The position numbers and the translations under genes are program-made. This document shows positions 30,607 through 59,983 of a stretch of 64,000 nucleotides of DNA, piece after piece. This DNA comes from Boswellia sacra (lineage: Eukaryota > Streptophyta > Magnoliopsida > Sapindales > Burseraceae): contig SNVD02010198.1 of NCBI GenBank assembly GCA_013180625.2, forward strand, positions 62,001-126,000, given 5' to 3'. The stretch's first letter is position 1. Each line of letters begins with the position of its first letter. The notes beneath the pieces are model-generated. The model made no database searches. It was not told the origin of the DNA and worked only from the letters and a program-made list of their open reading frames with translations.

Positions 30607-32531
30607 TGTTAGATATGTGCCTTAAGAGTGATGGATATTTTCTGTAAATTTATAGAAACATCATTAATAAATAAAGTTGTTATTATTTATTTTATCTAAA
30701 TATGATTGTATTAATGACTAAAGGCTCCAGAGTTTATTTATTGATAAAATTCTAAGATATATATGAGATATAGAATTTTATCATAGCTCAAAACTAGTTC
30801 ACAACCTATAAACAATAGCTGGACACTTTGTTTAGACAAGGTTGTTACGCGGTTTGTCTTCAATGGAGAAATGGTGAGTCTTTAACTATTTGAAGTGGAG
30901 ACTGCAGGACAAAGACACTTGTATATTATGAATGCATTGAACATGACCACGTGGAATTATATCATTTGGTTGAAATATTGTGACAGAATTAAAATTACCA
31001 CAACCAAGCACTAAAAACATTCATACCTTGATCTTAAGTGGGTAGTGTACCTCTAGTATGTAGCGTATGGTCTTTGACTAGAATAAAAAGTGAGATCTAA
31101 ATAAAGGTCAATACCTTGGCTAGTTGGGATTATAAAATCTGTATATTAGTAGACATTATATCATAGATATGAAATTATGACTTCTAAGGGATTGAAGAAT
31201 ATCACTTTGATAGTTTTATAAGATTTTAAGTGATAGAATCTTGGTCAAGTGTTTGATAAAAGATAGTCATTAAACTAATATTTATTTAAATAAATTTTAA
31301 ATCATTTAAATAGTGTAAAACTGGTATTAAGGGATCAAGATATAATTGGAGGGATAAAACGATAATTTATACCTAACTCTAATTATTGGTATTCCATGAA
31401 GGATATTTATGAAAACCTATTGCTCAATGGATAGGGCTTAAATGAAATAATTTAATCAGATTAAATTATTAATCTTTCTGTGAAGAATATTTAATTCAAG
31501 GATGCAGCTTTGGACCTATAGTGGAGTGCACCAAAGTTAATAAGTGGGACCCACTACGATTATGAGATAACACGTTACTGAGTCAAATTTATTGAAACTT
31601 ATAATTAAATATGTCCATCAGGGTCTCCTAAGTAATGAACAAATCATCTAAACATAAGACTAAAATATGAGTAATAATTATTTAATTTAATTGAGAATAA
31701 AATTTCATATATTAAATTAAATATGTTAAATTATATTTAATTAAAAGAGTTTAATTAAATAAAGAAGTTAATAGGCTTGATATTTAATTAATAAGATTAA
31801 TTAAATAAGTAATTGGGCTTATTGGGCCTATTAATTAATTAAATGAGATTTAATTAATTGTAAGTTTAATATGGAATTAAAGAGGCTTTCTAGTTATTTG
31901 AGATGGACTCAAATATATAAAAGTTCAATTAGATTTATATTAGGTTTGTAGAAACCTAATTAAATTAAATGTTCAATGAGATTTATACTAGGTTTGTAGA
32001 AGCCTAATTAAATTACAAGTCCAATCAGATTTATATTAGGTTTCTAGAAACCTAGTTAAATTATAAGTCTAATTAGATATATATAAGGATTAAAAGAAAC
32101 CTAATAAAATACTAAGTTCAAGTAATTACAGTTTAACAAGGAAACAAGGGAGGTATATAACATATCGGGGTTTCAATCAAAACCCTAAGAGATAAATAGG
32201 ACAAAAAATGTGAACAATATCTTTGCCCTAAAATTTGCACCAATCTTAAGCCTCCTACCCTAAGTAGAAACGCAAAAGCTTTTAAGGCACCCTTGTCATC
32301 ACGTTTGAGCTGCCTAGACCTCTCCTAACGCTGTTTCTTTTGTGTTCTTAGGCAATTATTTAGTCAAGCTACACTCCCACAATTGTTTTTCAGATTGATA
32401 TTCAACCATACTTGAGATCCAAAGTGGTAAGAAAGCACAAAAATTTTTGGAAGCCTGCATTCGCTAGATCCTTATCCCAGAGCTATTTTTTATTATGTTG
32501 ATTCGATCATATCTAAGTCTGGGATCCAACA
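30607..32531 (+). mobile_element. Solo LTR of the copia family, inside the PMD gene
   Basis: 1925 bp starting TGTTAGATATGTGCC and ending GGGATCCAACA, flanked by a perfect 5-bp duplication CTGGA (30602-30606 and 32532-32536). No primer site or internal region is attached, so it is the remnant left when the two LTRs of a full element recombined. It shares the landmarks of the Copia-1 and Copia-2 LTRs (CTCAAAACTAGTTCACAACC, CCTATTGCTCAATGG). Confidence 0.95.
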
Positions 32532-36900: not shown

Positions 36901-36930
36901 CTTTTATAGTACAACCCTGTCTTTCTTACT

Positions 36931-37190
36931 GGCCTCATCTGGTAGAATTTTATCTTTTAAGTATCTCTTCAGATCATATAACCATGGCTTCTCATCCATT
37001 TTAGCTTTCATTACATGGAGTTCTATGCAGAAAGGGCCTTATATTTATGATATCACTATTGGCCTCATCTAGTAGAATTTTGTCTTTTAAGTATCTCTTC
37101 AGATCATATAACCATGGCTTCTCATCCATTATGGCTTCCATTACATGAAGTTCTATGCAGGAAGGGCCTTATATTTATGATATCACTATT
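36931..37190. repeat. 130-bp tandem duplication within pol of copy C
   Basis: Two copies (36931-37060 and 37061-37190), both starting GGCCTCATCT and ending ATGATATCACTATT. Copy B has a single copy at the same place (about 21885-22015). 130 is not a multiple of three, so the duplication itself would shift the frame. Confidence 0.92.
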
Positions 37191-38121: not shown

Positions 38122-38938
38122 TCATGTTACTGGTTGATCATCCTTTAGGAGTCTGAAGATCGGTGAACAAATTATCGTCAATTTGGCAATGAATAAACTA
38201 ATGTATTGGATCTTCCCAATAAACCTTCTAACTTCTTTTTTCGTCTTGGTGATGGTATCTCTATGACATCTTACCTTGTTAGGATCTATCTCTATCCGCT
38301 TATTGCCAACTACGAATCCCAACAACTTTCTTGAGGTGACTTCAAAAGCACACTTCTTCGAATTTAGCCACAGCTTGTATTTTTTCAACCTTTCTAGGAA
38401 TCTATCTAATGCTTTGAAATGACCATCTCAAATCTCAGATTTCACCATCATGTCATCTACATATACTTCTATCTCCTTATGCATCATATCATGGAATAAC
38501 GTCATCGTCATTTGTTGGTAGGTCGCCACTGCATTCTTTAATCCGAAGGGCATCACCTTATATGTAGATGTGAGGCAAAGGAAAGTCATCCTTCGGTGCA
38601 GCCTTGTTAATGTCCTAGTAATCAACACACATTTGGACCCTTCCATCCTTCTTTGGTACTGGCATAATGTTGGCTAACCATTCCGAATATTTCACCACAT
38701 CTAGAAGCTTAGCTTCAATATGCTTGGAATCTTTTTCCTTGATTTTCTAAGCCCATTCCAGTCTCAACCTCCTTAACTTCTGCTTGACTGACTTCATATA
38801 CAGATACGTTAGAATCATATGTTTAGCAATACTGTTATCGATTCCAGGCACGTCATCATATGACCAGGCAAAGACTTCTTCATGTTTCTTTAATAATTTT
38901 TCAAATCTCTCTCTCTCTCTCTTTAGGAGTTGTATCAA
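38122..38938 (-). pseudogene. Reverse transcriptase of gypsy copy C
   Basis: Minus strand. N-terminal part at 38938-38747: KHEEVFAWSYDDVPGIDNSI. Palm at 38646-38428: VMPFGLKNAVATYQ followed by the catalytic EVYVDDMMVKS (YVDD). Thumb/connection at 38388-38122: GFVVGNKRIEIDPNKV and KEVRRFIGKIQYISLFIAKL. All main RT motifs are present, though split by two frame breaks. It copies the element RNA in intact relatives, and it would be the only RT in the three-copy cluster with a palm domain. Confidence 0.88.
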
Positions 38939-39392
38939 ATGTAGTTAATATATTCTTGGGTTTTTCAATTGTACCAAGATTAATGCCATGAGTTTGAATG
39001 GTATTAATATCAAATATGTTAGTGAAATGCAAATTATCATGCATAGTTCCATCAGGAAAGACATCACACAAGTAAGCAAATTGATTCTTTATTGCATTAA
39101 GCTTTGAAACATAAATATAATTCTCTTCTTCAAAGAGGTTAGGAATAAATAAATCTTCCTAATAGACATCTTTGATCCCTTCTTCAATGAAAGCAACAAG
39201 GTCGACAGATGGGTCCATTAGTTGTGCTTGATCTTGATGCTTCTCCTCTTTGATCTTCATCTTCTCAACCTCCTCAACCAAGTCATACCTCTTGATAATT
39301 TTAGCCTAAAGTAGGTCCTTGAAAATCTCGAATCTGGGCTTTAATATTCTCTTGTAAAGCCGTGATTCAATGACTCCCACTTACTTTATATC

Positions 39393-40237
39393 TTAGGCTT
39401 TGACAAACTTGTTGAACTCCTCCTTCTTGGACTCAAAGTTTTCTTCTTCATGGGATAAATAGCCTAACCTTTTTCTAGTGGTTTGACCCTTGAAATCTGG
39501 AAGGAATGGCATACCACTTATATTCTTCCCAAGCCCAGTTCTTGGCAAGTATCCTTGTTTCTTCATTATTCTAACAACAACTGGATTGACTTCATCAATC
39601 ATGGTTACATAAAAACCTCCCATGTATCGTATCTCTCTAACTTTCATACTCAAAGTAGAAGCTGCAATGATTGAGATAGCATGAATGGTCATAATCTCCC
39701 GTCTATATTGAATCAGATCTTCTACTGTAAAGTGAAAGAAACTTCACCAAGTAGATGGAACCATGCTTGACTTAATAAAACAGGAAAGGTGATAGGAATG
39801 TCAAGGACTGTGAACTCAGGCACAACTTCAATAGGTCTAGTCTTTACTAACGCCTTGAAAATCTAGATGACACTCCTTTTTGAGTCATCATAAGCCCTAA
39901 TCACAATCTCACAAGGCCCAAGGTTGTCTTTTTCAACACCGAACTTATGCAATATCTTCATAGGCACGATATTGATGGTAAACCCATCATCGACTGTGAT
40001 ACAAAAGGAAATCTTCCTTCCAATCTCTATGGTAATAAACAATGGCTTGTTATGATTCCTTCCTTGAAAAGGTAAGTCATTATCAGTGAAGGTGATCAAA
40101 CCCTTCTCATTTACCCTATTGGGTTCTCTTTCAATGATGGCAATCAACATCTTATTTGGAGTGGCAGCCATTGATATCTCTACCTCTGCCAAAGCTTTCA
40201 CCATGGCTTCTCGATGCTTTTGGGATGAGATCAACAA
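39393..40237 (-). pseudogene. Protease and G-patch region of gypsy copy C
   Basis: Protease at 40237-39863 (minus): ITVDDGFTINIVPMKILHKF corresponds to the retropepsin active-site segment, usually D-G/S-G-S/A; the active-site loop here is altered (DDGF). The downstream segment 39692-39393 contains VVRIMKKQGYLPRTGLGKNI and LGYLSHEEEN, a G-patch, an RNA-binding module found after protease in Tat/Ogre polyproteins. The stretch 38939-39392 is a low-similarity linker. Frames are broken. Confidence 0.75.
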
Positions 40238-43072: not shown

Positions 43073-43817
43073 TATAATTGGGGCTTTCATCCTGCCAGAG
43101 TGCTTAAGACCATGACACTATGTCAAAGCCTCTTTTAAGAGTCAAGAGAACACAAACGAGCCATGAGCACGTCTAGAGAATGGAGACGCCACCCAATTAT
43201 TCAATTCGGAATGAATAGGGGTAATCTGATCCCTCACTTTAGGACCTAAATTACCCTCATCCCTTTAGAGATAGGTTCAGAAAGTTAGATATGAGTCATT
43301 CGCCTTGTCCAAATCAAAATCCAACCTCCACTAGGGTATACCAAATAAAAATAGCTTATGTTATTATATAGTCTGTCTAAGTTGTTCATTTTATGCGCAC
43401 ATTGTTCATTTTCTCTTTTTAAAGATACATAAGGTGATTTCATTCAAGATACTTGTATATTCATACAAAAAAAAAAAAAGAGGGAGAAGAATATAATTAC
43501 AATTTCATTCAAACATAGGCGACAGGGGATAGGATTACATTGCTCTTCAACAATAAATAAATTTACTTCTAAACACTTCAAATATTATTCATTCATTCAT
43601 AACATTCATTGTATATTCATGCATATTATAAATTCAATGTAAACATTCAAGTTGAGACTCGATAAATAGTGAATTCCTCACCACCATATGTGAGTCTATT
43701 AAATGCTTATCAAGCCTCTACATGCATATTCATACACTCAATTATTATTATAAGTAATGGTCCCTGACCATCAATTTGAGTCCACCATCACTTCATGGCA
43801 CTATTCATATTTCTAAA

Positions 43818-45238
43818 TGATGCGTTCGAAACTAGCAAGTATACTAGTCGCACAAGTAATAAAGTGATGAGTGAGATATCGTTCCCACGAGGATTGATTC
43901 TAATTAAATTTGTTATTTTTCAGCAACAATAAACTAAATATGGGGGGTTTTTGTTGAATGATTAATTAAACTGAATACAAAGGCAAATAAAGAATAACAC
44001 AACACAATATTAAATGAATTGAAAATTCAATGAGAGACACTTGGTTAAGGGTTCTTTCTCTGCCACAAGATATGAATTTGTGAATTAACATAGAATTGAA
44101 ATCCAATTACAGAATTGAAGTTATCAACCGTAGATAACAACAAGCTCTGTTATCCCAATCTTTCCTTACTTTGTTGTTAAATAAAAAAAGCTCTTTATTT
44201 AATCTCTATCCATTAAACAACCTAGAACAAGCTCTCTGAGTTTAATTCAATGGAAGCATTACGATGAGAAAGATAGGTTGATCTAAGCGATAATCACACA
44301 AGTTCAGATTATTTAACCTAGGTTGTATTTTCTAATTGCAATCTCTGGTCACAATTTTGCTACTAATGATTGAAAATTCATGACAATTACGGATCAAGAT
44401 TTCTAATCTAGCAATAGACAACAACAGATTATATTCAGTTGGCCATTCCAAATACAATCATTAAGCAATCATAAGCATTAGATATGGGAAAATACAAGCA
44501 ACTTCAATTAGAGAATTGGATAACAATTTCTTACACAATCAACTCCCAAAATCCATATCAAGGGCTTTGAAATCACCCTCAACCAATTCAGATTTAGTTA
44601 CACATATTCAATCAGAATAACAAATACAATACAAGAAAATTCCAGAATTGAAAAGGAAAGAAAGAACTTAGCAAATTCTTTGAAAATCTTCTTTGTAGAT
44701 GAATCTTATTGGAATTGTAGTTCCTCCTCTTTCAAAATCTTCTTTCTCCTTCAAGACTGTCTCTTATACACATCTAGATGTGTATAAGAGACAGACGTTC
44801 TCCCCTCTTCAAGTTATGAAATAAAACCCTAAAATGTGTTTTAAATACTCTGCTACAGTAACGTGCTACAGTGTCCCGTATTGTACATGCTACAGTGATG
44901 TGTGGAATTACATTTCTACACTTCTTACACTGTTTTGATTACAACTTTCGGTACACTGAATGGATTCATAAACCGGAAATTTCTCCAAAAAGTAGACTTC
45001 GAGAGCTTTTCAACGGTATATGATATGTCATCGGGTTCATTGTATATCAATACAATTAAATCCGGGAAGATGGTTGACTAGCAGAGGTGAAAATGAAGGG
45101 TTTTACTCCATTTTTGTGCAAGTTGCTCCAAAACTCCTACAAACATCAAAACCACACAAAAACATAAAATACCAAGGAATATAGCAAAGATACATGGACG
45201 AATTGATATGAAAATGATATATAAATAGACACTTATCA
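43818..45238 (-). repeat. 3' LTR of the Athila-type element
   Basis: Plus-strand text starts TGATGCGTTCGAAACTAGC and ends GACACTTATCA. It differs from the 5' LTR by roughly 20-30 single changes (rough count by eye), plus a block of about 42 bp replaced by 38 bp of Tn5-end sequence (44757-44794). Confidence 0.95.
44757..44794. other. Two inverted Tn5 mosaic ends: likely library adapter left in the assembly
   Basis: CTGTCTCTTATACACATCT (44757-44775) is followed at once by its exact reverse complement AGATGTGTATAAGAGACAG (44776-44794). The 19-mer is the hyperactive Tn5 mosaic end, and the 38-bp palindrome is the Nextera mate-pair junction adapter. At the same place the 5' LTR has 42 bp of ordinary LTR sequence (52532-52573). 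The block is therefore almost surely technical and not biological. Confidence 0.95.
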
Positions 45239-45255
45239 AATTCCCCCACACTTAA
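45239..45255 (-). other. Polypurine tract of the Athila-type element
   Basis: Minus strand reads TTAAGTGTGGGGGAATT directly before the 3' LTR, a typical Athila tract. A second similar text (TTTAAGTGTGGGGGAGG) lies at about 45970-45990, near CACATTGAGGACAATGTG. Confidence 0.85.
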
Positions 45256-47208
45256 CTTTGCTAGTCCTCGAGCAACTACGACAATATGAAATAAAACTAA
45301 ACCGAAACAGAATCAACAAAAAATTAAAACACACAAATGCTTCATCTTGCAAATAGGCCTCAAAGATTGTACTTAATTATAAACCCAAGAAAAACTTCAA
45401 AATAATGCACTTGATCAAGAATTTTATCTCAAAGATTAATTTCGCTTCATTTCAATTCCTCAAGCGTGTGTGTGTGTAGAGCCATTCTCACCTAATCACT
45501 TGTAACACGGATGAGTTTATGCATAAAAATGAATCATATTTAATATTGAAGATGTGTGTATAAATGAACTCCATAGGCCTGCTTTTCAAGTCACTCTCCA
45601 CTAATGTAGACATGCACAACACCAAGGATCAAGTAGGACTTTATAAAGCATGTAACGTTTGGCTTGGGTGAAGGTATGATAAAGGATAATAATTTGGCTC
45701 AAATCATCCACAAACACATAAATCATTCAAGACTATGTAGAGCTCAATCCTATAACATAACTTCATTTCAATTCACCAGGTTACTCCCCCAAACTTATTT
45801 AGAACACTCCATCTTTTTTTTTTTTGCAGAAAACAAAAGAAAACTACACCCCCACACTTTGTTGTTTCATTCTTTTTAAGAACACTTAAGGGTATAGATC
45901 TCTTATTCTTCTTCTTTTGTTCTTTTGTTTTCTTCTTTTTTTCTTTTTTTTTCTTTTTTTTATTACACTTCCCCTCCCCCACACTTAAACAACACATTGT
46001 CCTCAATGTGTAAGTACGTGGACGATAGGTACAGATTGGCTTTTTTTTTTTGTTTTTCTTTTTTTTTTTTTTCAAACACAATGGAACTCACTTGTATTGC
46101 TCATGATACATCCCAACCTCCTCTAACTTCCCAAAACTAGAACATAGCTCAGAATTTAATTGTGAATGATCGACATGCTCATAGATAAGGGATAAACTGT
46201 TTGGAACAAATTCATTTTAGGTTAGGAAATCTTTTAGTGAGTTAACAAAGAAAAAGGCTTACAGAGGCTCAAAGGGGTAACTAGGGATCAATTTCTGTCG
46301 AGGTTGGCTATTAAGGCTCAAACGGTCCAAAGATGGCCTAAATCATTTCCCCAATGTTGCACCGCCTAGGATTTCGCCTTGAGTGACCATCAAACAAGTT
46401 CTAGAATTCATTGAAATCTGAAGAAACATTTAAATTACATAAACTTTCTCTAAGTGAACAAATAACTCAGTGATAATAGCTCAGTGCTCAATGTTGCGCA
46501 AGGAATCAAAAGCACAGCGAAAACCAATAAACATTTCAAGCACACAGATCCATGCATCATTTATCATTTTCCAAGAGTTATTCTTAATTCAATCATTATC
46601 TTATCATCTACCCACAAATTGCAAGAAAAGAGGTACGTGGCGTTGTTACACCTGAGTCAAGATTGTATATTTCAACAATCCTTAGGACCAGTAGCCCGCA
46701 GACTTAAGGTTTCCAGCCTATATACCTTTATTATGAAAGAACAAAACAAGAAACAAGACACTTCAAACAATATGAAATAAACAAACTACAGATTTTTTGA
46801 GAGAGAATGTGTTTCAAGAGTTAAGAAAACCCCATATTCTGCCATTCTCAGGTTTTTCCACCATGTTTTTTTTTTTGAATCGAAACTGATAAAGACAAAA
46901 ACACACAACAACTCGAAATTACATAAAACTAAACTTACTCAGAAAATAATAAAGTCCAACAAATCAGTAAACACAAACAAGTCAGTTAGAATGGGTCTAA
47001 AAAGTTTAGAAGTTAGCCTCCTTATTCAGCCATTATGGATTAAAGAACTCCAGAATGCGTTTCAAGAGAACTTGAACTTTTTAAGCCACCACTCTAAAAG
47101 CCAAGATTAGAAAATATTACCTGGGACAAAAGAAACAACCTGAAAAAAACTCAAATAAACACAATAAAAAGAAAGCAAATGAAAACAAAGCAAACCAGCT
47201 GATAGAGA
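45256..47208 (-). other. Long 3' non-coding region of the Athila-type element
   Basis: About 1.95 kb with no supported gene. Holds A/T homopolymer runs (45813-45827, 45935-45962, 46040-46072) and the palindromic CACATTGAGGACAATGTG, a phrase common downstream of Athila pol genes. Short ORFs here are low-complexity chance frames. Confidence 0.7.
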
Positions 47209-47885
47209 TTACAGATGAAGCGTTAAATCCAGTTTACGCCTCTTATTGCCTTCTCCAAACCAATCTATCCGAGATATTGTTGGATCAGGCGAATAGACGA
47301 ATGCTTGGAATTTGTCAATTAACTCCCCTGCAGTTGAAGCTGTAACCAGGATTTGCCTCGCCGACTGTGAGATGAAGTTTTTTTCTACTGCTTGATCAAG
47401 AAAAGACCACAAACCATCAAAAAAATTATTGACATTTAACAAACCAATGGGTTTCCGATGGATGTTTAGCTGTGCCCAAGAGGTGATTTGAAATATCTCC
47501 TCTAATGTACCATAACCACCAGGCAAGCTATAAATGCATCGGACTTAACAACCATATGTGCAATACGCTCATGCATACTAGAGACCTGTAACTCTTCCCC
47601 GATTGTGTTGCCTACGATATCTCGTACCGCTAATGGTTTAGGGATAATGCCGAGAACTTTGCTCCCTCCTAGGGATGCAGCTGTTGACACACACCCCATT
47701 AACCCAAGACTACCCCCTCCATAAATCAAATGAATACCCTTCGCAGCTAATGTCCTACCAAGATCAAGAGCTGCTGTTGTAAACTCTCCATCTTTACCAA
47801 ATTGCGATCCACAAAATACGCAAATATTTTGGAATCGCCGAATTGGTGTTTTCTCCATTTCTAAAAGTGCTCTAAACTTGTGCAA
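47209..47885 (-). pseudogene. LOG-family cytokinin riboside 5'-monophosphate phosphoribohydrolase, captured, one frameshift
   Basis: Two overlapping minus frames form one protein of about 225 residues, the usual LOG length. N-terminal frame (47885-47502): QNICVFCGSQFGKDGEF, then IHLIYGGGSLGLMGCVSTAA, IIPKPLAVRDIVG and the MHERIAHM segment. C-terminal frame (47526-47209): MPGGYGTLEEIFQITSWAQL, the hallmark PGGYGTLEE motif, then KPIGLLNVNNFFDGLW. A single missing base between AFIA and PGG explains the break. LOG enzymes cleave cytokinin nucleotides to free active cytokinins in the cytosol and nucleus. The Arg of the MHxRKA motif is kept but the Lys is Ile. Plant LOG genes have several introns and none is seen, so this looks like a processed cDNA caught by the retroelement. 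The frameshift, if real, kills it. Confidence 0.9.
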
Positions 47886-48031
47886 GACAATGATGTACGT
47901 TAGGTATTATGCGATTCAAGTGCACGACAGGTTATAAAATGACATGCAAGACAGGTTATAAAATGACATTTCAAAATATGCAAATGGATATATACACACG
48001 TAAAACTCTCAAATTTGACATATGGGGACAT
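47886..48031 (-). promoter_or_regulatory. Short upstream region of LOG with a 23-bp direct repeat
   Basis: ACAGGTTATAAAATGACAT occurs twice in tandem (about 47928-47972). On the minus strand a TATA-like GTATATATCC lies near 47985-47996, about 105 bp before the LOG ATG. Promoter function is only suggested by position. Confidence 0.4.
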
Positions 48032-48280
48032 AATTTCGGTGGGGGTTGCTCGATGCAGATTTATCGCCCCAAGATTTGAAAAAATGAGATATGCTTTCGG
48101 CGAGGTTTGACAAAACCTACACACTTGTCTCCCACGTGAAGCATGGAAAATGGAGATACACTTTCGGCGGGGGTTGACAAAACCTCCACACTGTCTCTCA
48201 CACGTGCAATGAAAAATGGAGATATACTTTCGGCGGAGGTTGACGAAACCTCCGCACTTGTCTCCACGTGTGCTTATACA
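48032..48280 (-). repeat. 66-bp tandem repeat with G-boxes, upstream of LOG
   Basis: Units at 48081-48146, 48147-48212 and 48213-48278, plus a partial at 48032. Each has AAAATGGAGATA, CTTTCGGCGG, a GGTTTGACAAAACC-like inverted repeat holding a TTGAC core, and one perfect CACGTG (48133-48138, 48201-48206, 48265-48270). CACGTG is the plant G-box bound by bZIP and bHLH factors. Since 66 is divisible by three, the minus strand also shows a 22-residue peptide repeat (CGGFVN.RRK.ISIFH) in a 134-codon frame. A regulatory role looks more plausible than a coding one, but both are open. Confidence 0.75.
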
Positions 48281-48498
48281 TGGGGTAGTCATATGGTTTG
48301 TCAAAAAGAAAACTTGAAATTAAAACAAACAAAATCAACAAACAACAACAACACAAAAACAACATTGATAATCAGATCAAACGAAACAAGAAGAAAATAA
48401 ATTTCGACAACAACAACACACATTCAAATATACAAGTAGTTGTGATTGTGGCTCACATCTTCCTCTGGTTTTACGTCCAGTAACGGCTGAAACGCCTT

Positions 48499-49053
48499 CT
48501 ATGAGTCGGGGATTTGCTTCCCATCCAGTTTTCTTATAAACTGGCAAACAGGGTCGTTTTTAGTCAGATTCCCTAGACTATGATGCTGCAATTCATCACG
48601 AAATTGTGTCCATAGATTAAGCAATTCACGCTGAACAAGTCCACAAGAATGTGACTCAAGAGTTAATAAAACATTATCCAGCGACTCATTACTCAAACCA
48701 TTCTTAATAAATGAAAGTTTATCTTCTCTATTCCTGGACACAAAACCTAATGAACGACAAGTCTGGTTACAATTCCATCTAGCACATTTATAACATACTT
48801 GTAACCTTTTCGCTCTTCGCCTCTTGGCGTAGTAGCTCTTTCCTAGACCAGGCATGTATTTTGCGAGATTAATGTCCGGCTCACCGGACAATCTCACCTT
48901 GGCTTCGATAAGCCATCGGATATCAGCAGGCACATTTAGGAGCATCAACGCCCAAAGTCTAGTCATTCGTACTTTATAAATTTTAAACACAGCATTTTGA
49001 GGAAGTGAAGGGAAATATTTACGAAGGTTCGATAGAAAGATATCGGCATCCAT
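48499..49053 (-). CDS. Unrecognised 184-codon ORF in the Athila-type element
   Basis: An open frame without stops. I take the Met at 49053 (MDADIFLSNLRKYFPSLPQN) as start; the frame continues upstream to 49290 with a hydrophobic stretch (MFAIVLLSLLCVFSFVFALF) that may be chance or a membrane anchor. Visible features: a Trp/Leu-rich segment RLWALMLLNVPADIRWLIEA, a basic YYAKRRRAKRLQ, and a Cys cluster CYKCARWNCNQTC (CX2CX4CX3C) that could bind zinc. The C-terminal half is charged and helical-looking, with no repeats. Codon-like composition and lack of stops over 555 bp favour a real or recently real protein. I do not recognise the family; it is not a known gag/pol domain, so it may be another captured host gene. 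Confidence 0.65.
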   Translation of the reverse strand: MDADIFLSNLRKYFPSLPQNAVFKIYKVRMTRLWALMLLNVPADIRWLIEAKVRLSGEPDINLAKYMPGLGKSYYAKRRRAKRLQVCYKCARWNCNQTCRSLGFVSRNREDKLSFIKNGLSNESLDNVLLTLESHSCGLVQRELLNLWTQFRDELQHHSLGNLTKNDPVCQFIRKLDGKQIPDS

Positions 49054-49485
49054 TGAAGAGGAGAAAAGAAGAGATATTACCGATAATGCGATCGGGTTTG
49101 TTTTTCTCCAAGATATGCACGTTTCAAACCTTTGGCGAATGACTTCAACTTTCGTTTGGATGTTTCCACAAGCTGCTGCACAAATGAGCTCAAAGCACAG
49201 AGTAATCAAATTAAACAAAAGAAAGGAAAAGAAAAGAGCAAAAACGAAACTAAAGACACATAAAAGAGATAACAACACAATAGCAAACAAAAGTCAAAAA
49301 CAAGTAAAAAATATAAAAACAAATGAGACAGATGGCAAAGAGAGATAAAACCTGATCAATTTGATGGCCTACGGAAGGAATCTCCTTGAGACACAAAAAT
49401 CAATCATTATTACCTCATTTTATTTTTCTTTTCTTCTTTTCAAAAACATTGGGTTGCCTCCCAATAAGCGCTTGGTTTAACGTCC

Positions 49486-51480
49486 TCAGCCCGACGTTGG
49501 TTCCATCATGGGAGGATCCAATCTTCGCTGTGCTTCTCTAGTGGGCTTGGATCCTTTTTTCCACAAGAAATGGTGCATGCATATGGCTGGGCCTTGGATG
49601 TGAGCACTTGCCCACCCAATAGCCGTTTTGTGATCTCTAAGTACATGGACGAGTTTCACTTCTTGTATTGGTGCAAGGCCCATTTCTATTATAATTGACA
49701 AAGTACCGTTCTCACCCAAGAATCCATGATTCAAATGATCTGGAAGTGACTTAAGCTCCACGGTATTGGCCTTCATCACAGAAGAGAGAAGTTTCACATT
49801 AGATAAAGGAAATTGAATGCATGAAACATCATACCTATTTGTGGTTATGGCTATGGTCTCATCTAAGAATGCCACAGCTTCCTCCATTTCTTTGGACACT
49901 TGTATCAAAATTCCTGACTCATTGGAATTTTCTATCCCTATATGCTCACTAATAGCTACATCCAATCCATTCTTGCGAGTTAACTCAAAATATTGTTGTG
50001 GCAAAGAATCAACAACGTCAACTGCAAAAACAGAATGTAAGTCACTAGAGTACCTCATTGCCTCAAAAATATTGAAACATATCACCTTGCCATCAAACTC
50101 TATGATGAGAGTGCCATCATGAACATTAATCTTAGTTCTAACAGTTCTCGAGAATGGTCTCCCAAAAAGAATCGAAGTTGGATTAGGAGATGTCTCATCC
50201 TCTATTTCAAGGACATAGAATTTTGCTGGGAAAATCAATTGGTTCACCTGCACAAGCACATCTTCCACAACTCTTTTGGGATATGCATTAAAATGATCAG
50301 CAAGTTGAATGGTAATACTAGTTTTCGCAAAAGGTCCAAGATCTAAAGAAGCATAAATAGAATATGGCATGACATTAATAGATGCTTCTAAATCTAACAT
50401 AGCTCTTTCAAACTTGGTTTTACCAATGGTGCATGGAATGGTGATCGTACCTGGATTACTGCATTTCGGAGGAATTTTTCTTTGTTGTACAGTTGAAACA
50501 TTTTCCTCCACACTTACTTTCTCATTCCCTTTTAACTTTCTCTTGCTGGTGCATAACTCTTTGAGACATTTTGTATAACAATGCACTTGCTCAGTAGCAT
50601 CCAGAAGTGGTATATTTATCTCGATTTTACGAGAAGTTTCCAGGATTTCTTGTTCTTGTTCCTCCTTCGATTTTGCAAATCTACTAGGAAAAAGTGGAGG
50701 AGAAACATATGAAGGAATGGGACTTATAGGATTTACCTGAGAAGTGGTGTCATCTCCTTCATCAGTTTGTGATTTCTTTGGCAGGACATCTAATTGCTCT
50801 TCATTTTGCAAAGTTATCGCACAAGAATTCTCTCTTGGATTGATCACCGTTTGACAAGATAATTCTTCTGAGCCTTGGCCCTCGAATTTGCTCATGCTAG
50901 TAGCCAATTGTCCCATTTGATTTGCCAGGTTTTGGATACTTGCCCCAGTTTCCTGCTGGAATTGCATTGTGTTAGTGGCAAGTGCATTAACAATATCTTC
51001 GAGAGACATACCTGAGTTTTGCGAAGCTGGTTGCGGTGCTGGATGTGGCATTGGTGGTGGTTGCATTTGAAATGTTTGCTGCACTCTAGGTTGATTGAAA
51101 CCTTGTAGCCGATTTGGCATCACATTTGGAGTGATTGGTTGATGATTCCAGTAACTGAAATTATGTTGATCTTCCCATCCAGCATTGTAAGTGCTAGAGA
51201 AAGGATCATACCATTGCCTCGTTTGTCCTGGAAATCCACCCATGGCATTGGCTTGTTCCATATATTCTTCTTGTAAAGTTGGATACATGTCGATTGGATG
51301 CTCCATCGTAGAATATATCCCACATTCATAAGATTTTTGCATATCTCCTACAGCCATGTTTTCCACAAGAGAGGTTAGCTCAGAAAGTTGTTGTTCAATG
51401 TTCGGAGTGCTTACCTCATTTACTCTCCATGGTACTTGTGGCTCAAATCCGCTACTGAATTGATAGAAGTTTACCGCCAT
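49486..51480 (-). CDS. Athila-type gag C-terminus, protease and RT start (truncated polyprotein)
   Basis: One open frame of 664 codons from the Met at 51480 (12 more if the first Met at 51516 is used), only about 90 bp after the primer site. The usual N-terminal gag core is absent: the frame begins in the post-core linker, with a broken knuckle (YECGIYSTMEHPIDMYP), then a Pro/Gln-rich stretch (QMQPPPMPHPAPQPASQN). The protease follows: TIPCTIGKTKFERAMLDLEA, SINVMPYSIYASLDLG and SILFGRPFSRT. The active-site triplet reads DLE, not DLG. The end carries the start of RT (LRDHKTAIGWASAHIQGPAI, then REAQRRLDPPMM) and stops five residues on. Palm, RNase H and integrase are cut out precisely up to the post-pol motif. 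Long open frame suggests recent activity or trans-complementation of the element. Confidence 0.88.
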   Translation of the reverse strand: MAVNFYQFSSGFEPQVPWRVNEVSTPNIEQQLSELTSLVENMAVGDMQKSYECGIYSTMEHPIDMYPTLQEEYMEQANAMGGFPGQTRQWYDPFSSTYNAGWEDQHNFSYWNHQPITPNVMPNRLQGFNQPRVQQTFQMQPPPMPHPAPQPASQNSGMSLEDIVNALATNTMQFQQETGASIQNLANQMGQLATSMSKFEGQGSEELSCQTVINPRENSCAITLQNEEQLDVLPKKSQTDEGDDTTSQVNPISPIPSYVSPPLFPSRFAKSKEEQEQEILETSRKIEINIPLLDATEQVHCYTKCLKELCTSKRKLKGNEKVSVEENVSTVQQRKIPPKCSNPGTITIPCTIGKTKFERAMLDLEASINVMPYSIYASLDLGPFAKTSITIQLADHFNAYPKRVVEDVLVQVNQLIFPAKFYVLEIEDETSPNPTSILFGRPFSRTVRTKINVHDGTLIIEFDGKVICFNIFEAMRYSSDLHSVFAVDVVDSLPQQYFELTRKNGLDVAISEHIGIENSNESGILIQVSKEMEEAVAFLDETIAITTNRYDVSCIQFPLSNVKLLSSVMKANTVELKSLPDHLNHGFLGENGTLSIIIEMGLAPIQEVKLVHVLRDHKTAIGWASAHIQGPAICMHHFLWKKGSKPTREAQRRLDPPMMEPTSG

Positions 51481-51570
51481 GTTGTCTAAACACAAACAAT
51501 CAGAAAAGAAAAACAAACAAAAATGAGAATTAACAATAAAAACAAAACAACAAATCGATTAGAAAATCAA

Positions 51571-51588
51571 TCCCCGGCAACGGCGCCA
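51571..51588 (-). other. Primer binding site of the Athila-type element
   Basis: Minus strand TGGCGCCGTTGCCGGGGA, six bases after the LTR end. This is the standard Athila-lineage primer site. Confidence 0.97.
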
Positions 51589-51594
51589 AAAACT

Positions 51595-53018
51595 TGATGC
51601 GTTCGAAACTAGCAAGTATACTAGTCGCACAAGTAATAAAGTGATGAGTGAGATATCGTTCCCACGAGGATTGATTCTAATTAAATTTGTTATTTTTCAG
51701 CAACAATAAACTAAATATGGGGGGTTTTGTTGAATGATTAATTAAACTGAATACGAAGGCAAATAAAGAATAACACAACACAATATTAAATGAATTGAAA
51801 ATTCAATGAGAGACACTTGGTTAAGGGTTCTTTCTCTGCCACAAGATATGAATTTGTGAATTAACATAGAATTGTAATCCAATTACAGCATTGAAGTTAT
51901 CAACCGTAGATAACAACAAGCTCTGTTATCCCAATCTTTCCTTACTTTGTTGTTAAATAAAACAAGCTCTTTATTTAATCTCTATCCATTAAACAACCTA
52001 GAACAAGCTCTCTAAGTTTAATTCAATGAAGCATTACGATGAGAAAGATAGGTTGATCTAAGCAATAATCACACAAGTTCGGATTATTTAACCTAGGTTG
52101 TATTTTCCAATTGCAATCTCTGATCACAATTTTGCTACTAATGATTGGAAATTCATGACAATTACGGATCAAGATTTCTAATCTAGCAATAGACAACAAC
52201 AGATTATATTCAGTTGGCCATTCCAAATACAATCAGTAAGCAATCATAAGCATTAGATATGGGAAAATACAAGCAACTTCAATTAGAGAATTGGATAACA
52301 ATTTCTTACACAATCAACTCACAAAATCCATATCAAGGGCTTTGAAATCACCCTCAACCAATTCAGATTTAGTTACACATATTCAATCAGAATAACAAAT
52401 ACAATACAGAGAAATTCCAGAATTGAAAAGGAAAGAAAGAACTTAGCAAATTCTTTGAAAATCTTCTTTGTAGATGAATCTTCTTGGAATTGTAGTTCCT
52501 CCTCTTTCAAAATCTTCTTTCTCCTTCAAGAACTCCAAGGGATGAGAGAAATCCAGAAATGCAGCCTCCTCCCACGTTTTCCCCTCTTCAAGTTATGAAA
52601 ATAAAACCCTAAAATGTGTTTAAATACTCTGCTACAGTAACGTGCTACAGTGTCCCGTATTATACATGCTACAGTGATGTGTGGAATTACATTTCTACAC
52701 TTCTCACACTGTTTTGATTACAACTTTCGGTACACTGAATGGATTCATAAACCGTAAATTTCTCCAAAAAGTAGACTTCGAGAGCTTTTCAACGGTATAT
52801 GATATGTCATCGGGTTCATTGTATATCAATACAATTAAATCCGAGAAGATGGTTGACTAGCAGAGGTGAAAATGAAGGGTTTTACTCCATTTTTGTGCAA
52901 GTTGCTCCAAAACTCCTACAAACATCAAAACCACACAAAAACATAAAAATACCAAGGAATATAGCAAAGAAACATGGACGAATTGATATGAAAATGATAT
53001 ATAAATAGACACTTATCA
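51595..53018 (-). repeat. 5' LTR of the Athila-type element
   Basis: 1424 bp, intact at the place where the 3' LTR carries the Tn5-end block. Ends GACACTTATCA, followed by the duplication CTAAA. Confidence 0.95.
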
Positions 53019-54293
53019 CTAAACATGGTATTCATAAAATCAATTAATTAATTAGGATTCAATACAAAGCCATAATCTAGAATTATGGCACTTCTACCTA
53101 GATTTGTATTTCTTATCATGGTAATTCTACCTAAACATGGCATTTCTAGCCTAATTTAACCAACCAATATCAATAATGGCACCTAATTCAATCACTCAAG
53201 GGTAAACACGATAATCCTTACCTTTTTTTATGCTATTTTCTAGCATGCTTTAAAAATCATAAGTCTTCCTAAAATGATTCTAATCATGAGCTCCTAAACA
53301 TGATTCTAAGGCATCCGCAAAGAAAATAAACTCTTAAAAATGTTTCTAATATAGGAGCCAAAGATAACTTATCTTGACACGTATTTCCATCTTGCAAAAC
53401 AGATGATGGTTAAAACAATTCATGATAACCTTAAACATGCTCCTCAACATTAAAACAAATCCTAGCCATGCTTATTCTAAGCATAAATAAACCTAAACAT
53501 GTTCAATTCTAAGCAAGAAAAATAAAGAAGAAAAAAAGAGGAAAAAGAGAGGATTGCTCTCAAGATGTACTCTTTCTGGGTTTAGAATAATAGAACGCTT
53601 GAAAAACCTTTAAACTTAAAAAGACTTCTTGAATTCTTAAGTGTGTCTTCAAGAGGGAGAAGAGAGGATTTCAATGTGAATGAAAGTGAGCCATTTGGGT
53701 TGGTGGGGGGGTGGGCACGGGCGGGCGCATTGGTGGGTGGTGGGTGGTTGAGGTGTGGTCGTAGGGATGGGTGGAGTGGGTTTATATAGTTGAAGGTTGA
53801 ATTGAAAAAATGAAGAAAAATCAAAATAGGAAGGTGTTTAACAAAATTTTTCAAAAATGAGGGGAGGGTAGTCGGCCAACTATATGAGGACTGTTGGCCG
53901 ATAATGGTGGACAATCGACTGGTGGTAAGATAGCCGGCTGGCTGTCCTACAACTACCGGTCGGTGATAGCAGACCAAACCCTTTTGTTTCTCATTTTTTC
54001 AATGTAGTCCTCCTTCAACCTTTGTCTATTCAATCACATGTAACTCTTCAAATTCAACTCTGATTTGTGATCTATAAAAGTCTATGAAAACTAGACATCC
54101 GTAACTTCGCAACAGTGTATGACTCATCATTAGATTCCTGCTGGATTAATTTTTGTGCTTTTTTAAATTCAATTGTTAGTGTTCTAAGCTTTTGATTGAT
54201 TTTTCCTCAACTCTCTTCTTTTTGCTTCCAAGGGTATTTTTGTCATTTTTTACTCTTCATTCATTATCGAGCCTCAAAAATCAAGTGTCTACA

Positions 54294-57851: not shown

Positions 57852-59167
57852 TGTTAGGAATATGCCTTAAAAATATGAATGTTTTTCTGTAACATGTAAA
57901 CATTCTTATAAATAAAGTGTTGTTATTTATATTTTTTCAAATATGATCATATCAATGACTAGAGGTTCTAGAGCTTGTACATTAATAAAGTTTCTGTATA
58001 CATGAGATATATATGAGAATAGAACTTTATCATAACTCAAAACAAGTTCACAACCTATAAAAAAAAGTTGGGCGCTTTATTTAGACAATGTTGTTATGTT
58101 GTTTGTCTTCAATGGAAAAATGGTGAGTCTCTAGCCATTTGAAGTGCAGACTTTAAGACAAAGACATTTGTGCATTAATGAATGCATTGAACAAGGACCG
58201 TGTATAAATTATCCATTTGATAGAAATATCGTGAGCGAATATGAATTTCTACACCTGAGCATTAAAGGCATCTATACCTTAATCCTGAGTGGGTAGTGTA
58301 CCTCTAGTATACAGGTTATGGTCTTTTACTAGAATAAAAAATGAGATATTAAAGATAAAGGTCAATATCTTAGCTAGTTGGGATTGCAAGATCTGTATAC
58401 TAGTAGACATTATACCATAGATATGGCATTCATGACTATGAAAAGATTGTAGAGTACCACCCTAATGGTTTTACAAGGTTTTAAATGATAAAATCTTAGC
58501 CCAGTGTTTAACGAAGGTTTTTCATTAAACTAAGATTTATTTAATAAATCTTAACTCATTTAAATGGTATTAGATTGGTATCAAAGACTCAAGATGTAAT
58601 TGGAGGGGTAAAGCGATAATTTATACCTAGCTCCAATTATTGATATTTCATAAAGGGTATTTATGTAAACATGTTGCTCAATGGATAAGCTTAAAAAATA
58701 ATTTAATCAGGTTAATTTATTAAGCTTTCTGTAAAGAATATTTAATTCAAGAGTGAAACTTTGAACTTATAGTGGAATGGACGAAAGTTAATAGGTGAGG
58801 CCTACTACAATTATGAGATAATAAGGTATTGGATCAAACTTATTGGAGTTTGTAATTAAATATATCCATCAAAGTCCCTTGGACAGCTGACTAACAAATT
58901 ATCTGAACAAGGCCTGGACTTGAGAACTTGATTATTTAATTTAATTAGTTTTATTGGAGACATGATTTTGTTGACTAACAAATTTAATTAATTTAATTAT
59001 CTGAACAAGATGTATAATTAATTTAACAATCATTTCTGGCTTCCACGAAGGGTAGCGTAGGAAGCCAGACATGATTTTGATTGGATCTAAGTACTAATTA
59101 AATGATCTAAGTACTAGAGACTATTCTGCTGCATTGATTGGATCAAAATCATGTCTGGCTTCCTACG
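57852..59167 (+). repeat. 3' LTR of Copia-2, shortened and rearranged
   Basis: 1316 bp. The first 1.1 kb matches other family LTRs; after about 59035 the normal sequence is replaced by an inverted copy of the right junction, then the last about 75 bp of the LTR. End GGCTTCCTACG (CA changed to CG) followed by the duplication CTACC. Confidence 0.88.
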
Positions 59168-59182
59168 CTACCCTTCGTGGAA
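59041..59182. repeat. Perfect 41-bp inverted repeat across the Copia-2 right junction
   Basis: Arm 1 at 59041-59081 (starts TTCCACGAAGGGTAGCGTAG) and arm 2 at 59142-59182 are exact reverse complements with a 60-bp spacer. Arm 2 spans the LTR end, the CTACC duplication and ten bases of Copia-1 LTR. Confidence 0.97.
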
Positions 59183-59983
59183 TACCAATAATTAGAGCTA
59201 GGTATAATTTATCGTTTTACCTTTCTAATTACGTCTTAAGCCCTTGATATTAGTTTTATAGTATTTAAATGATTTAGATTTATTACAATAAATCCTAGTT
59301 TAATGAACAACCATCATTAAATACTTGATCAAGATTTTATCATTTAAAACCTTGTAAAATCATCAAGGTAGTATTCTACAATCCTTTCAGAGTCATGAAT
59401 TCCATATCTATCATATAATGTTAACTAACATATAGATCTTATATTCCTGACTAGCTAAGGTATTTAACTTTCATTTTAGATCTCACTTTATATTCTAGTT
59501 ATAGAATATAACTTGTATACTAAAGGTACACTACCCACTTAGGATTAAGTTAAGAATGTCTTTAGTTCTCGGGTATAGAAATTCACATTCGGTCACAATA
59601 TTTCTACCAAATAGATAATTTCTACGTGGTCCGTGTTCAATGTATTTACTGATGCACAAGTGTCTTTGTCATGAAGTCTCCACTTCAAATAGTTAGAGAT
59701 TCATCATTTCTCTATTGAAGACAAACAACACAATAACCTTGTCCAAACAAAGCGCCCAACTATTGTTTATATGTTGTGAACTAATTTTAAGTTATGATAA
59801 AATTCTATTTCTCATATATATCTTATATATACAGAACTTTATCAATATACAAGCTCTGAAGCCCCTAGTCATTAATACAATCATATTGGGATAATTTATA
59901 AATAATAACTTCTATTCATTTATAACAATAATGTTTATATTATTACAGAAAATCATCCATACTCTTAAGACAAATTTTTAACA
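59173..59983 (-). repeat. 5' LTR of Copia-1, outer part
   Basis: Continues the LTR cut at 11776: CTTCGTGGAATACCAATAAT aligns to CTTCATGGAATACAAATAAT near 2161 of the 3' LTR, and the match runs to the LTR end ...AAATTTTTAACA (59983). Flank TGTTT follows. Confidence 0.92.

What the first reader, a model, noticed from the sequence alone, without database searches (positions are those of the whole stretch)
47209..49053. Retrotransposon carrying a cytokinin-activating LOG gene and a second unknown gene
The Athila-type element holds, in sense orientation between its pol remnant and its 3' LTR, an intronless LOG-family sequence with the PGGYGTLEE and GGGSLGLMG motifs and an adjacent unknown ORF. LOG makes active cytokinin in one step, so a mobile copy could change dose or location of the hormone. 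The flanking LTRs are nearly identical, so the unit moved recently. Exact TSD and matching LTRs show that the cargo is part of the element. This is the best candidate here for an undescribed system.
Basis: partly seen in the sequence, partly recalled or inferred. Interest (0 to 1): 0.93.

Follow-up and report, generated by a model that had tools for sequence, protein, structure and literature searches.

The report
Retrotransposons carrying hormone and virus-like genes
This plant genome holds a large family of jumping elements that carry two extra genes, a modified copy of a growth-hormone-activating enzyme and a gene resembling a plant-virus nucleic-acid-binding protein, and both appear to be kept by selection even in elements whose own replication genes have decayed.

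Summary
The window copy (43818-53018, minus strand) is a Ty3/gypsy LTR element with a 5-bp TSD, primer site, polypurine tract, gag-PR remnant, deleted pol, then a 184-aa ORF and a LOG sequence. The 'unknown ORF' matches the carlavirus nucleic-acid-binding protein families (PF05515, PF01623). The LOG here is split by a frameshift, perhaps an assembly error; intact LOG frames are common in other copies.
Of 21 LOG-chosen loci read, 20 carry NABP then LOG; 16 of 16 NABP-chosen loci carry LOG. A second element family with other LTRs has the pair, and gene models in Rhamnella and Orobanche run NABP into LOG.
In pol-deleted copies gag-PR evolves neutrally while LOG and NABP show strong purifying selection. 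Element-like LOGs keep the catalytic Arg and Glu, but 112 of 120 lack a Lys of the adenine/prenyl pocket, and 56 of 71 long ones end in an LxLxL tail.
LOG domains in Athila-like elements were known; I found no report of the NABP pairing in seven searches. Most likely it is an accessory cassette that helps the element spread; its biochemical function is inferred.

The parts
51595..53018 (-). 5' LTR
   Evidence: pairs with 43818-45238; TG..CA ends; primer site adjoins
43818..45238 (-). 3' LTR (contains an adapter artefact)
   Evidence: 98.7% identity to the other LTR outside the patch
44757..44794 (.). back-to-back Tn5 mosaic end (library adapter, recalled) left in the assembly in place of LTR sequence; not biological
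   Evidence: exact match, none in 100 shuffles; absent from the partner LTR
43813..43817 (.). target-site duplication CTAAA, left
53019..53023 (.). target-site duplication CTAAA, right
51571..51588 (-). primer binding site TGGCGCCGTTGCCGGGGA (tRNA-Asp type, recalled)
   Evidence: same 18 bases in L025's 5' piece and in L015
45239..45252 (-). polypurine tract
   Evidence: AGTGTGGGGGAATT next to the 3' LTR; the same 14 bases in L025
49486..51516 (-). gag-protease remnant ending at the start of reverse transcriptase; rest of pol deleted
   Evidence: 676-aa ORF without a Pfam match of its own; named by position and by its relatives in long copies, which run on into RT, RNase H and integrase; neutral in short copies
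48499..49053 (-). NABP-like gene, 184 aa, intact (frame open to 49290)
   Evidence: PF05515 2.1e-10, PF01623 3.3e-5, both above cut-off; 154 homologues; 97-99% identical protein at the other 149 best places in the genome
47502..47855 (-). LOG, N-terminal part
   Evidence: PF03641 35.4 bits; 93-96% aa identity to five copies aligned over all 110 residues
47209..47526 (-). LOG, C-terminal part in another frame, with PGGYGTLEE and the KRRKLDLTLHL tail
   Evidence: PF03641 82.7 bits

Best explanation
The window holds one pol-deleted copy of a large, recently active Ty3/gypsy (probably Athila-type) retrotransposon family whose 3' accessory module is two genes in fixed order, NABP then LOG. Shown: the module recurs in nearly every copy read, in a second element family of the same genome and in gene models of other eudicots, and both genes carry the mark of purifying selection in the replicating lineages, even in short copies whose gag-PR drifts neutrally. 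From this I infer that short copies borrow Gag-Pol from long copies but must still carry the cassette in cis. Inferred further: the NABP-like protein works like carlavirus cysteine-rich proteins, binding nucleic acid in the nucleus and blunting RNA silencing or acting as a transcription factor; the LOG variant releases active cytokinin, or a related base, from its ribotide where the element is expressed, favouring dividing, meristem-like cells in which new insertions are inherited. The LOG's basic LxLxL tail suggests nuclear targeting and corepressor contact. The 0.8 below is for the cassette being a selected, element-serving module; the detailed mechanism I put at about 0.4.
For: Linkage: 20 of 21 LOG-chosen loci carry NABP upstream of LOG; LOG in 16 of 16 NABP-chosen loci; the two best-150 lists share 19 loci, all NABP-to-LOG on one strand at 1096-1397 bp, 0 within 5 kb in another arrangement. 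Mobility: of 13 elements with both LTRs read, 10 have exact 5-bp TSDs, all different, L015 4 bp as scored, 2 none; LTR K2P 0.003-0.070. Long copies carry RT, RNase H, integrase. Selection on variants shared by 2 or more copies: short forms (13 plus the window) LOG 36 syn/9 nonsyn (obs/exp 0.10, P 2e-12), NABP 7/3 (0.17, P 0.008), gag-PR 59/134 (0.85, P 0.16), spacer 0.81-1.11. The PR-to-RT stretch is constrained in 5 long forms (7/5, 0.28, P 0.03) but not in short ones (20/57, 1.12). LOG in copies chosen by NABP 34/14 (0.18, P 6e-9); pol of long forms 26/7 (0.10). LOG dN/dS between the two families 0.16-0.19. Viral type: 69 of 78 homologues match PF05515, 67 of 78 PF01623. Other plants: gene models P0070, P0093, P0066; one LOG clade, SH-aLRT 97.
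Against: No expression, protein or activity data. Most copies looked at are broken: LOG intact in 2 of 16 NABP-chosen copies, NABP in 5 of 20 LOG-chosen ones (6 with L028, whose frame is open), by decay or sequencing error. One-copy variants also lean to synonymous (LOG 0.41, NABP 0.36 in short forms; LOG 0.58 in NABP-chosen copies), which pure decay would not give, so copy choice plays a part; one of three spacer frames shows 0.74 (P 0.02) for one-copy variants. Whether the 16 NABP-chosen copies are short or long was not read. The pocket Lys is missing, and the cytokinin equivalog model of NCBIfam is not met (118 of 300 bits; no plant control run). L001 has no NABP in its 1.5-kb flank; L049, pol plus NABP from another source, shows no LOG in the 986 bases left. 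The NABP fold model was too weak to compare (pLDDT 64).
Confidence: 0.8

Rival explanations
1. Passive cargo: the LOG and NABP sequences were transduced once and hitchhike without function.
For: Transduction of host genes by LTR elements is common (general knowledge); most copies looked at are broken.
Against: Shared variants in LOG and NABP are strongly biased to synonymous changes while gag-PR and the spacer of the same copies are neutral; LOG dN/dS 0.16-0.19 across two families; NABP homologues at 51-68% identity in named species of several plant orders.
Confidence: 0.03
2. The element LOG is no longer a cytokinin enzyme: with the pocket Lys replaced and an EAR-like tail gained it has become a nuclear binding or regulatory protein, or an enzyme on another nucleotide.
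For: Lys replaced by Ile, Leu, Met or Val in 112 of 120 element-like LOGs, Lys in 120 of 120 LOG1/3-type; Lys at this place belongs to the adenine site and the predicted prenyl site in Cg1261 (passages of PMC5379747); LxLxL in the last 14 residues of 56 of 71 element-like against 0 of 120.
Against: Catalytic Arg kept in 111 of 120 and catalytic Glu in 104 of the 109 without a gap there; PGGxGTxxE loop largely kept, which a mere scaffold would not need.
Confidence: 0.3
3. The cassette has been domesticated and is kept for the host's benefit, as a source of cytokinin or of antiviral function.
For: Purifying selection cannot by itself tell host from element benefit.
Against: The genes lie in dispersed recent insertions with own LTRs and TSDs; host-level selection would act on few copies (reasoning; an LTR-free locus was not searched for).
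Confidence: 0.08
4. The NABP likeness is convergence of a retrotransposon zinc-binding protein, not descent from a plant RNA virus, or the viruses took it from such elements.
For: No entry named as a virus among the 120 listed homologues, most of which are unnamed, and none found in IMG/VR; direction of transfer untested.
Against: Both viral families match above curated cut-offs; PF05515 over 110 residues, not only at the cysteines.
Confidence: 0.3

Closest known systems
LOG-domain (YgdH) extra ORFs of Athila-like Ty3/gypsy elements (Steinbauerova et al. 2011, cited in PMC9289625 for Citrus and P. trichocarpa; the 2011 paper is not held, its abstract recalled)
   Same: LOG-family ORF in gypsy elements, in Athila-like ones by recall
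   Different: Here paired with a viral-type NABP gene, in two families, in an estimated thousand or so scored copies (rough), with selection measured, a changed pocket residue and a new tail; none of these appears in the passages read
Carlavirus cysteine-rich / nucleic-acid-binding proteins (PF05515, PF01623)
   Same: Scores above both family cut-offs; basic stretch followed by a Cys cluster
   Different: Encoded by an LTR retrotransposon; 70 of 120 listed homologues are 178-186 aa
Orchid Ty3/gypsy elements with an AlkB m6A demethylase (PMC9289625: outline with abstract, passages and one section read)
   Same: An accessory gene, of a kind also found in plant RNA viruses, kept by a gypsy lineage
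   Different: Another gene and lineage, one accessory gene, shown active in vitro there
Plant LOG1/LOG3/LOG8 enzymes
   Same: 54% identity of the L022 LOG to LOG3; catalytic Arg and Glu kept
   Different: Separate clade in the set used, Lys to Ile in this genome's main family, KRRK-LDLTLHL tail, one uninterrupted frame

Membership tests
Ty3/gypsy LTR retrotransposon | LTR pair, TSD, PBS, PPT, and RT-RNaseH-INT order in long relatives | tested here: met
   for the window; domains in L027 and, in pieces, L013
Athila lineage | Extra ORFs 3' of pol | tested here: met
   NABP and LOG lie 3' of pol
Athila lineage | No additional RNase H domain (a Tat trait, PMC6317226 passages) | tested here: inconclusive
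   Pfam shows only RT, RT_RNaseH and integrase families in two L027 ORFs and, with one weak viral polymerase match, two L013 ORFs; no dedicated aRH profile used
Athila lineage | Position in an RT/INT tree with reference elements | not tested
   no reference sequences at hand
LOG family | PF03641 / TIGR00730 match and PGGxGTxxE with catalytic Arg and Glu | tested here: met
   L022 and L015
LOG family (cytokinin equivalog) | Score above the NF058542 cut-off; conserved pocket Lys | tested here: not met
   118 and 115 of 300 bits (no plant LOG control run); Ile or Met instead of Lys in L022 and L015
LOG family (cytokinin equivalog) | Phosphoribohydrolase activity on cytokinin ribotides | not testable with these tools
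   needs an assay
Carlavirus NABP / CRP | Match above PF05515 and PF01623 cut-offs | tested here: met
   41.4 against 23 and 24.2 against 20.9 bits
Carlavirus NABP / CRP | Lies at the 3' end of a flexivirus genome, overlapping the coat protein gene (recalled; stated for mandarivirus) | tested here: not met
   lies between pol and LOG of an LTR element
Carlavirus NABP / CRP | Silencing suppression, nucleic-acid binding | not testable with these tools
   needs assays

The most novel reading that the evidence does not exclude
A plant retrotransposon lineage has built a two-protein 'effector cassette', one part from a plant RNA virus and one from the host's cytokinin pathway, that manipulates silencing and cell identity for the element's spread; pol-deleted copies then live as satellites that must carry the cassette but no replication genes, the reverse of the usual non-autonomous element.
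Probability: 0.4. Interest if true: 0.93.

Novelty: new variant of a known kind. Interest (0 to 1): 0.75.

Why it matters
Extra ORFs of plant LTR elements have mostly unknown roles. Here two of them can be read (viral-type NABP, LOG enzyme) and substitution patterns separate them from the rest of the element, so the question whether transposons use host hormones and viral suppressors becomes directly testable. It also suggests that counts of LOG genes in plant genomes, and gene models such as the LOGL10-named ones of poplar in this clade, may include transposon genes.

Tried and rejected
One-off insertion: rejected. Assembly chimera as source of the cargo: rejected, since the same order recurs on many contigs, although an adapter artefact and many single-base indels (80 of 108 in the spacer lie in or near homopolymers) show that single frames cannot be trusted. 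IMG/VR scans with one NABP and with the alignment gave no relative. The prokaryote genome scan gave one hit, L049, most likely plant DNA in a bacterial MAG. NABP structure: AlphaFold pLDDT 64, so no fold search. Solved structures with the NABP profile: one hit at E 0.56, a ribosomal protein. The host's own intron-bearing LOG genes were not retrieved: element copies fill the lists even with Arabidopsis LOG3 as query. Literature: seven answered searches; no listed title or abstract start names a NABP-retrotransposon link; (Pfam names) found two unrelated papers. Steinbauerova 2011 is not held, so a mention of NABP there cannot be excluded.

Full report
WHAT IS IN THE WINDOW. The window is G000:C5154:62001-126000 of an unnamed 638.6-Mb assembly in 7431 contigs, a plant by its contents. 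An LTR element runs on the minus strand from 53018 to 43818 (9.2 kb). The LTRs are flanked by the same 5 bases, CTAAA. The bases after the 5' LTR include TGGCGCCGTTGCCGGGGA, which fits a tRNA-Asp primer (recalled), and a polypurine tract precedes the 3' LTR. Inside, in order, lie a 676-aa ORF (49486-51516) that I read by position and by its relatives as gag-protease ending at the start of reverse transcriptase (Pfam finds no domain in it), a 184-aa ORF (48499-49053), and a LOG sequence (47209-47855). Outside an adapter patch the LTRs differ at 18 of 1347 sites (98.7%, K2P 0.0135; 0.5-1.0 Myr with recalled rates of 1.3e-8 and 7e-9).

TWO CORRECTIONS. The LOG is in two overlapping frames, so this copy as assembled would not make a whole LOG protein. 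The 3' LTR holds a perfect back-to-back Tn5 mosaic end at 44757-44794, by recall a library adapter left in the assembly; of 49 loci fetched one, L025, has another. Single-base indels are frequent in the copies and mostly sit in or near homopolymers (80 of 108 in the spacer). So a frameshift in a single copy may be decay or sequencing error.

THE SECOND GENE. The 'unknown ORF' scores 41.4 bits against Viral_NABP (cut-off 23) and 24.2 against Carla_C4 (cut-off 20.9); 69 and 67 of 78 aligned sequences, the window's included, match them at E 0.01. A protein search gave 154 homologues, 120 listed at 49-79% identity, 70 of the 120 being 178-186 aa long; the named ones come from Populus, Xanthoceras, Rhamnella, Orobanche and Gossypium. 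Carlavirus CRPs are described as silencing suppressors, and that of chrysanthemum virus B also as a transcription factor causing hyperplasia (passages of PMC12172455).

THE CARGO IS FAMILY-WIDE. PF03641 gives 10198 loose candidates in the host genome; only the best 150 were scored, and all 150 cover the whole domain without stops. The NABP gives 13972 loose candidates; the best 150 are full length, 149 without stops. Loose candidates are not copies. The two lists share 19 loci, all NABP then LOG on the same strand 1096-1397 bp apart, none within 5 kb in another arrangement; a rough recapture estimate is about 1140 such copies, although the lists are best-scoring, not random, samples. I read 20 stretches of 10 kb (two shorter) around LOG hits: all 20 have NABP and LOG. 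Of the first 8 loci cut by the tool, L001 lacks NABP in its 1.5-kb flank; it is not among the 20, so the sum is 20 of 21. Of 16 copies chosen by NABP, 16 have LOG. In a best-150 list chosen by a 64-residue N-terminal query, 63 of 150 LOG frames are at least 208 aa long.

LONG AND SHORT FORMS, AND A SECOND FAMILY. Thirteen of the 20 copies are short like the window's; six (L011, L013, L019, L025, L027, L028) keep pol (1525-2019 of 2019 bases of the L027 pol ORF), with RT, RNase H and integrase domains where tested, L027 and L013. L025 with its upstream piece L029 is about 12.5 kb, its LTRs 99.6 and 99.5% identical to the window's 5' LTR. L015 is another family: its own 1.53-kb LTRs (98.2%), a gag ORF, NABP and LOG, about 68% identical to the window's proteins over most of their length. 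Of 13 elements with both LTRs read, 10 have exact 5-bp TSDs, all different, L015 4 bp as scored, L021 and L026 none; K2P 0.003-0.070.

SELECTION. I split variants into those seen in one copy (decay and error) and those shared by two or more (inherited through replication). Codons with a gap or with two or more changes were left out, and L015 was not included. In short forms (13 copies plus the window) shared variants are 36 syn/9 nonsyn in LOG (0.10 of neutral, P 2e-12), 7/3 in NABP (0.17, P 0.008), 59/134 in gag-PR (0.85, P 0.16); the spacer read in three frames gives 0.96, 0.81 and 1.11. One-copy variants: LOG 30/30 (0.41), NABP 23/21 (0.36), gag-PR 83/251 (1.13), spacer 1.09, 1.27 and 0.74 (the last P 0.02). 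That LOG and NABP are below 1 even here shows that copy choice, or selection still visible in young copies, plays a part. The short copies were chosen by LOG score, which flatters LOG but not directly NABP; LOG in NABP-chosen copies still gives 34/14 for shared variants (0.18, P 6e-9) and 25/34 for one-copy ones (0.58). Controls: pol of the long forms 26/7 (0.10); the PR-to-RT stretch 7/5 in five long forms (0.28, P 0.03) but 20/57 in short forms (1.12). LOG dN/dS between the two families is 0.16-0.19, with dS above 1. P values treat sites as independent. The plain reading: short copies have stopped needing their own Gag-Pol but not the cassette.

THE LOG IS CHANGED. In a tree of 62 LOGs (47 element-like, 12 LOG1/3 types, LOG8, two bacterial; chosen by length and name from the lists) the element-like ones form one clade (SH-aLRT 97) apart from LOG1/3/8 (96) (quick method, long branches for the two fused gene models, other plant LOG paralogues not in the set). 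Thirteen of the 120 come from Reevesia pubescens under 9 chromosome-like tag prefixes and 15 from Diplodiscus trichospermus under 12 (counted by hand), as expected of transposons. Of the 120, 111 keep the catalytic Arg and 104 of the 109 without a gap the catalytic Glu, but 112 have Ile, Leu, Met or Val for the Lys next to the Arg, which is Lys in 120 of 120 LOG1/3 types and in the three bacterial chains shown. In Cg1261 Arg155 and Glu178 are catalytic and Lys156 belongs to the adenine and predicted prenyl sites (passages of PMC5379747). Of 71 element-like LOGs of 195 aa or more, 56 have LxLxL in the last 14 residues, 49 of them after basic residues; 0 of 120 LOG1/3 types do. LxLxL is the form of EAR repression motifs (recalled). 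The first branch of the clade (Acer, P0140, P0147, P0148) keeps Lys and ends, where complete, near KRRRLD without LxLxL in the members printed, so both traits look derived; this branch could also be cellular.

OTHER PLANTS. P0070 (Rhamnella) and P0093 (Orobanche) are gene models in which NABP runs into LOG; P0066 (Rhamnella) joins an integrase end to NABP; P0116 (Gossypium) ends in what looks to me like a LOG C-terminus. P0001 and P0126, NABP and LOG, both list a contig of 8723 bases. L049 has an open integrase region followed by an intact NABP but no LOG in the 986 bases left, so NABP may be the older partner.

WHAT IT DOES. Shown: a two-gene module, mobile, recent, with the mark of selection. 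Inferred: it serves the element. A virus-type silencing suppressor or transcription factor plus a cytokinin-releasing enzyme could raise expression and place it in dividing cells; the LOG tail and pocket change may mean a nuclear role or another substrate. I hold the general reading at 0.8 and the detailed cytokinin-plus-suppressor mechanism at about 0.4.

WHAT IS KNOWN. LOG (YgdH) domains in LTR-retrotransposon consensuses of two Citrus species and P. trichocarpa are in print (PMC9289625, section on the domain screen read), in line with Steinbauerova 2011, whose abstract I recall as naming two Athila-like elements with LOGL4 similarity. The section text names no NABP; its figure and supplement were not seen. 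In a review and two surveys on extra ORFs (PMC7264820, PMC6317226, PMC11728184: passages only), the terms LOG and lysine decarboxylase were not found in the first two, nor nucleic acid binding in the first and carlavirus in the second; they were not searched for in the third.

Noticed in passing
44757-44794: Library adapter (back-to-back Tn5 mosaic end) left inside the LTR; a second case in L025 at 9156-9193, so the assembly needs cleaning.
   Followed up: partly
38122-40237: Remnant-looking ORFs on the minus strand, one with a G-patch domain just under Pfam's cut-off (39393-39692, 20.6 of 22 bits); by my reading another gypsy element. G-patch in gypsy elements is in print (PMC9289625).
   Followed up: no
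58018-59825 and 30753-31625: A long imperfect hairpin (arms 336 and 310 nt, 84% and 79% complementary) with a third related copy 27 kb away; looks like a foldback or MITE-like repeat.
   Followed up: no
36927-37186: Tandem duplication of 130 bp, 94% identical.
   Followed up: no
L009-L028, NABP and LOG: Synonymous divergence is three times higher in LOG (0.157, 171 pairs) than in NABP (0.049, 36 pairs of nine copies) of the family; LOG comes in at least two sequence classes, which suggests recombination between subfamilies or extra constraint on NABP RNA.
   Followed up: no
L015 2714-5263 (element strand): Gag ORF, middle ORF and NABP lie in one frame separated by single stop codons; readthrough expression is possible.
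   Followed up: no
L049 (DAIEQH010000041.1): A contig of a Nomurabacteria MAG carries plant-type retrotransposon pol and NABP, most likely contamination.
   Followed up: partly
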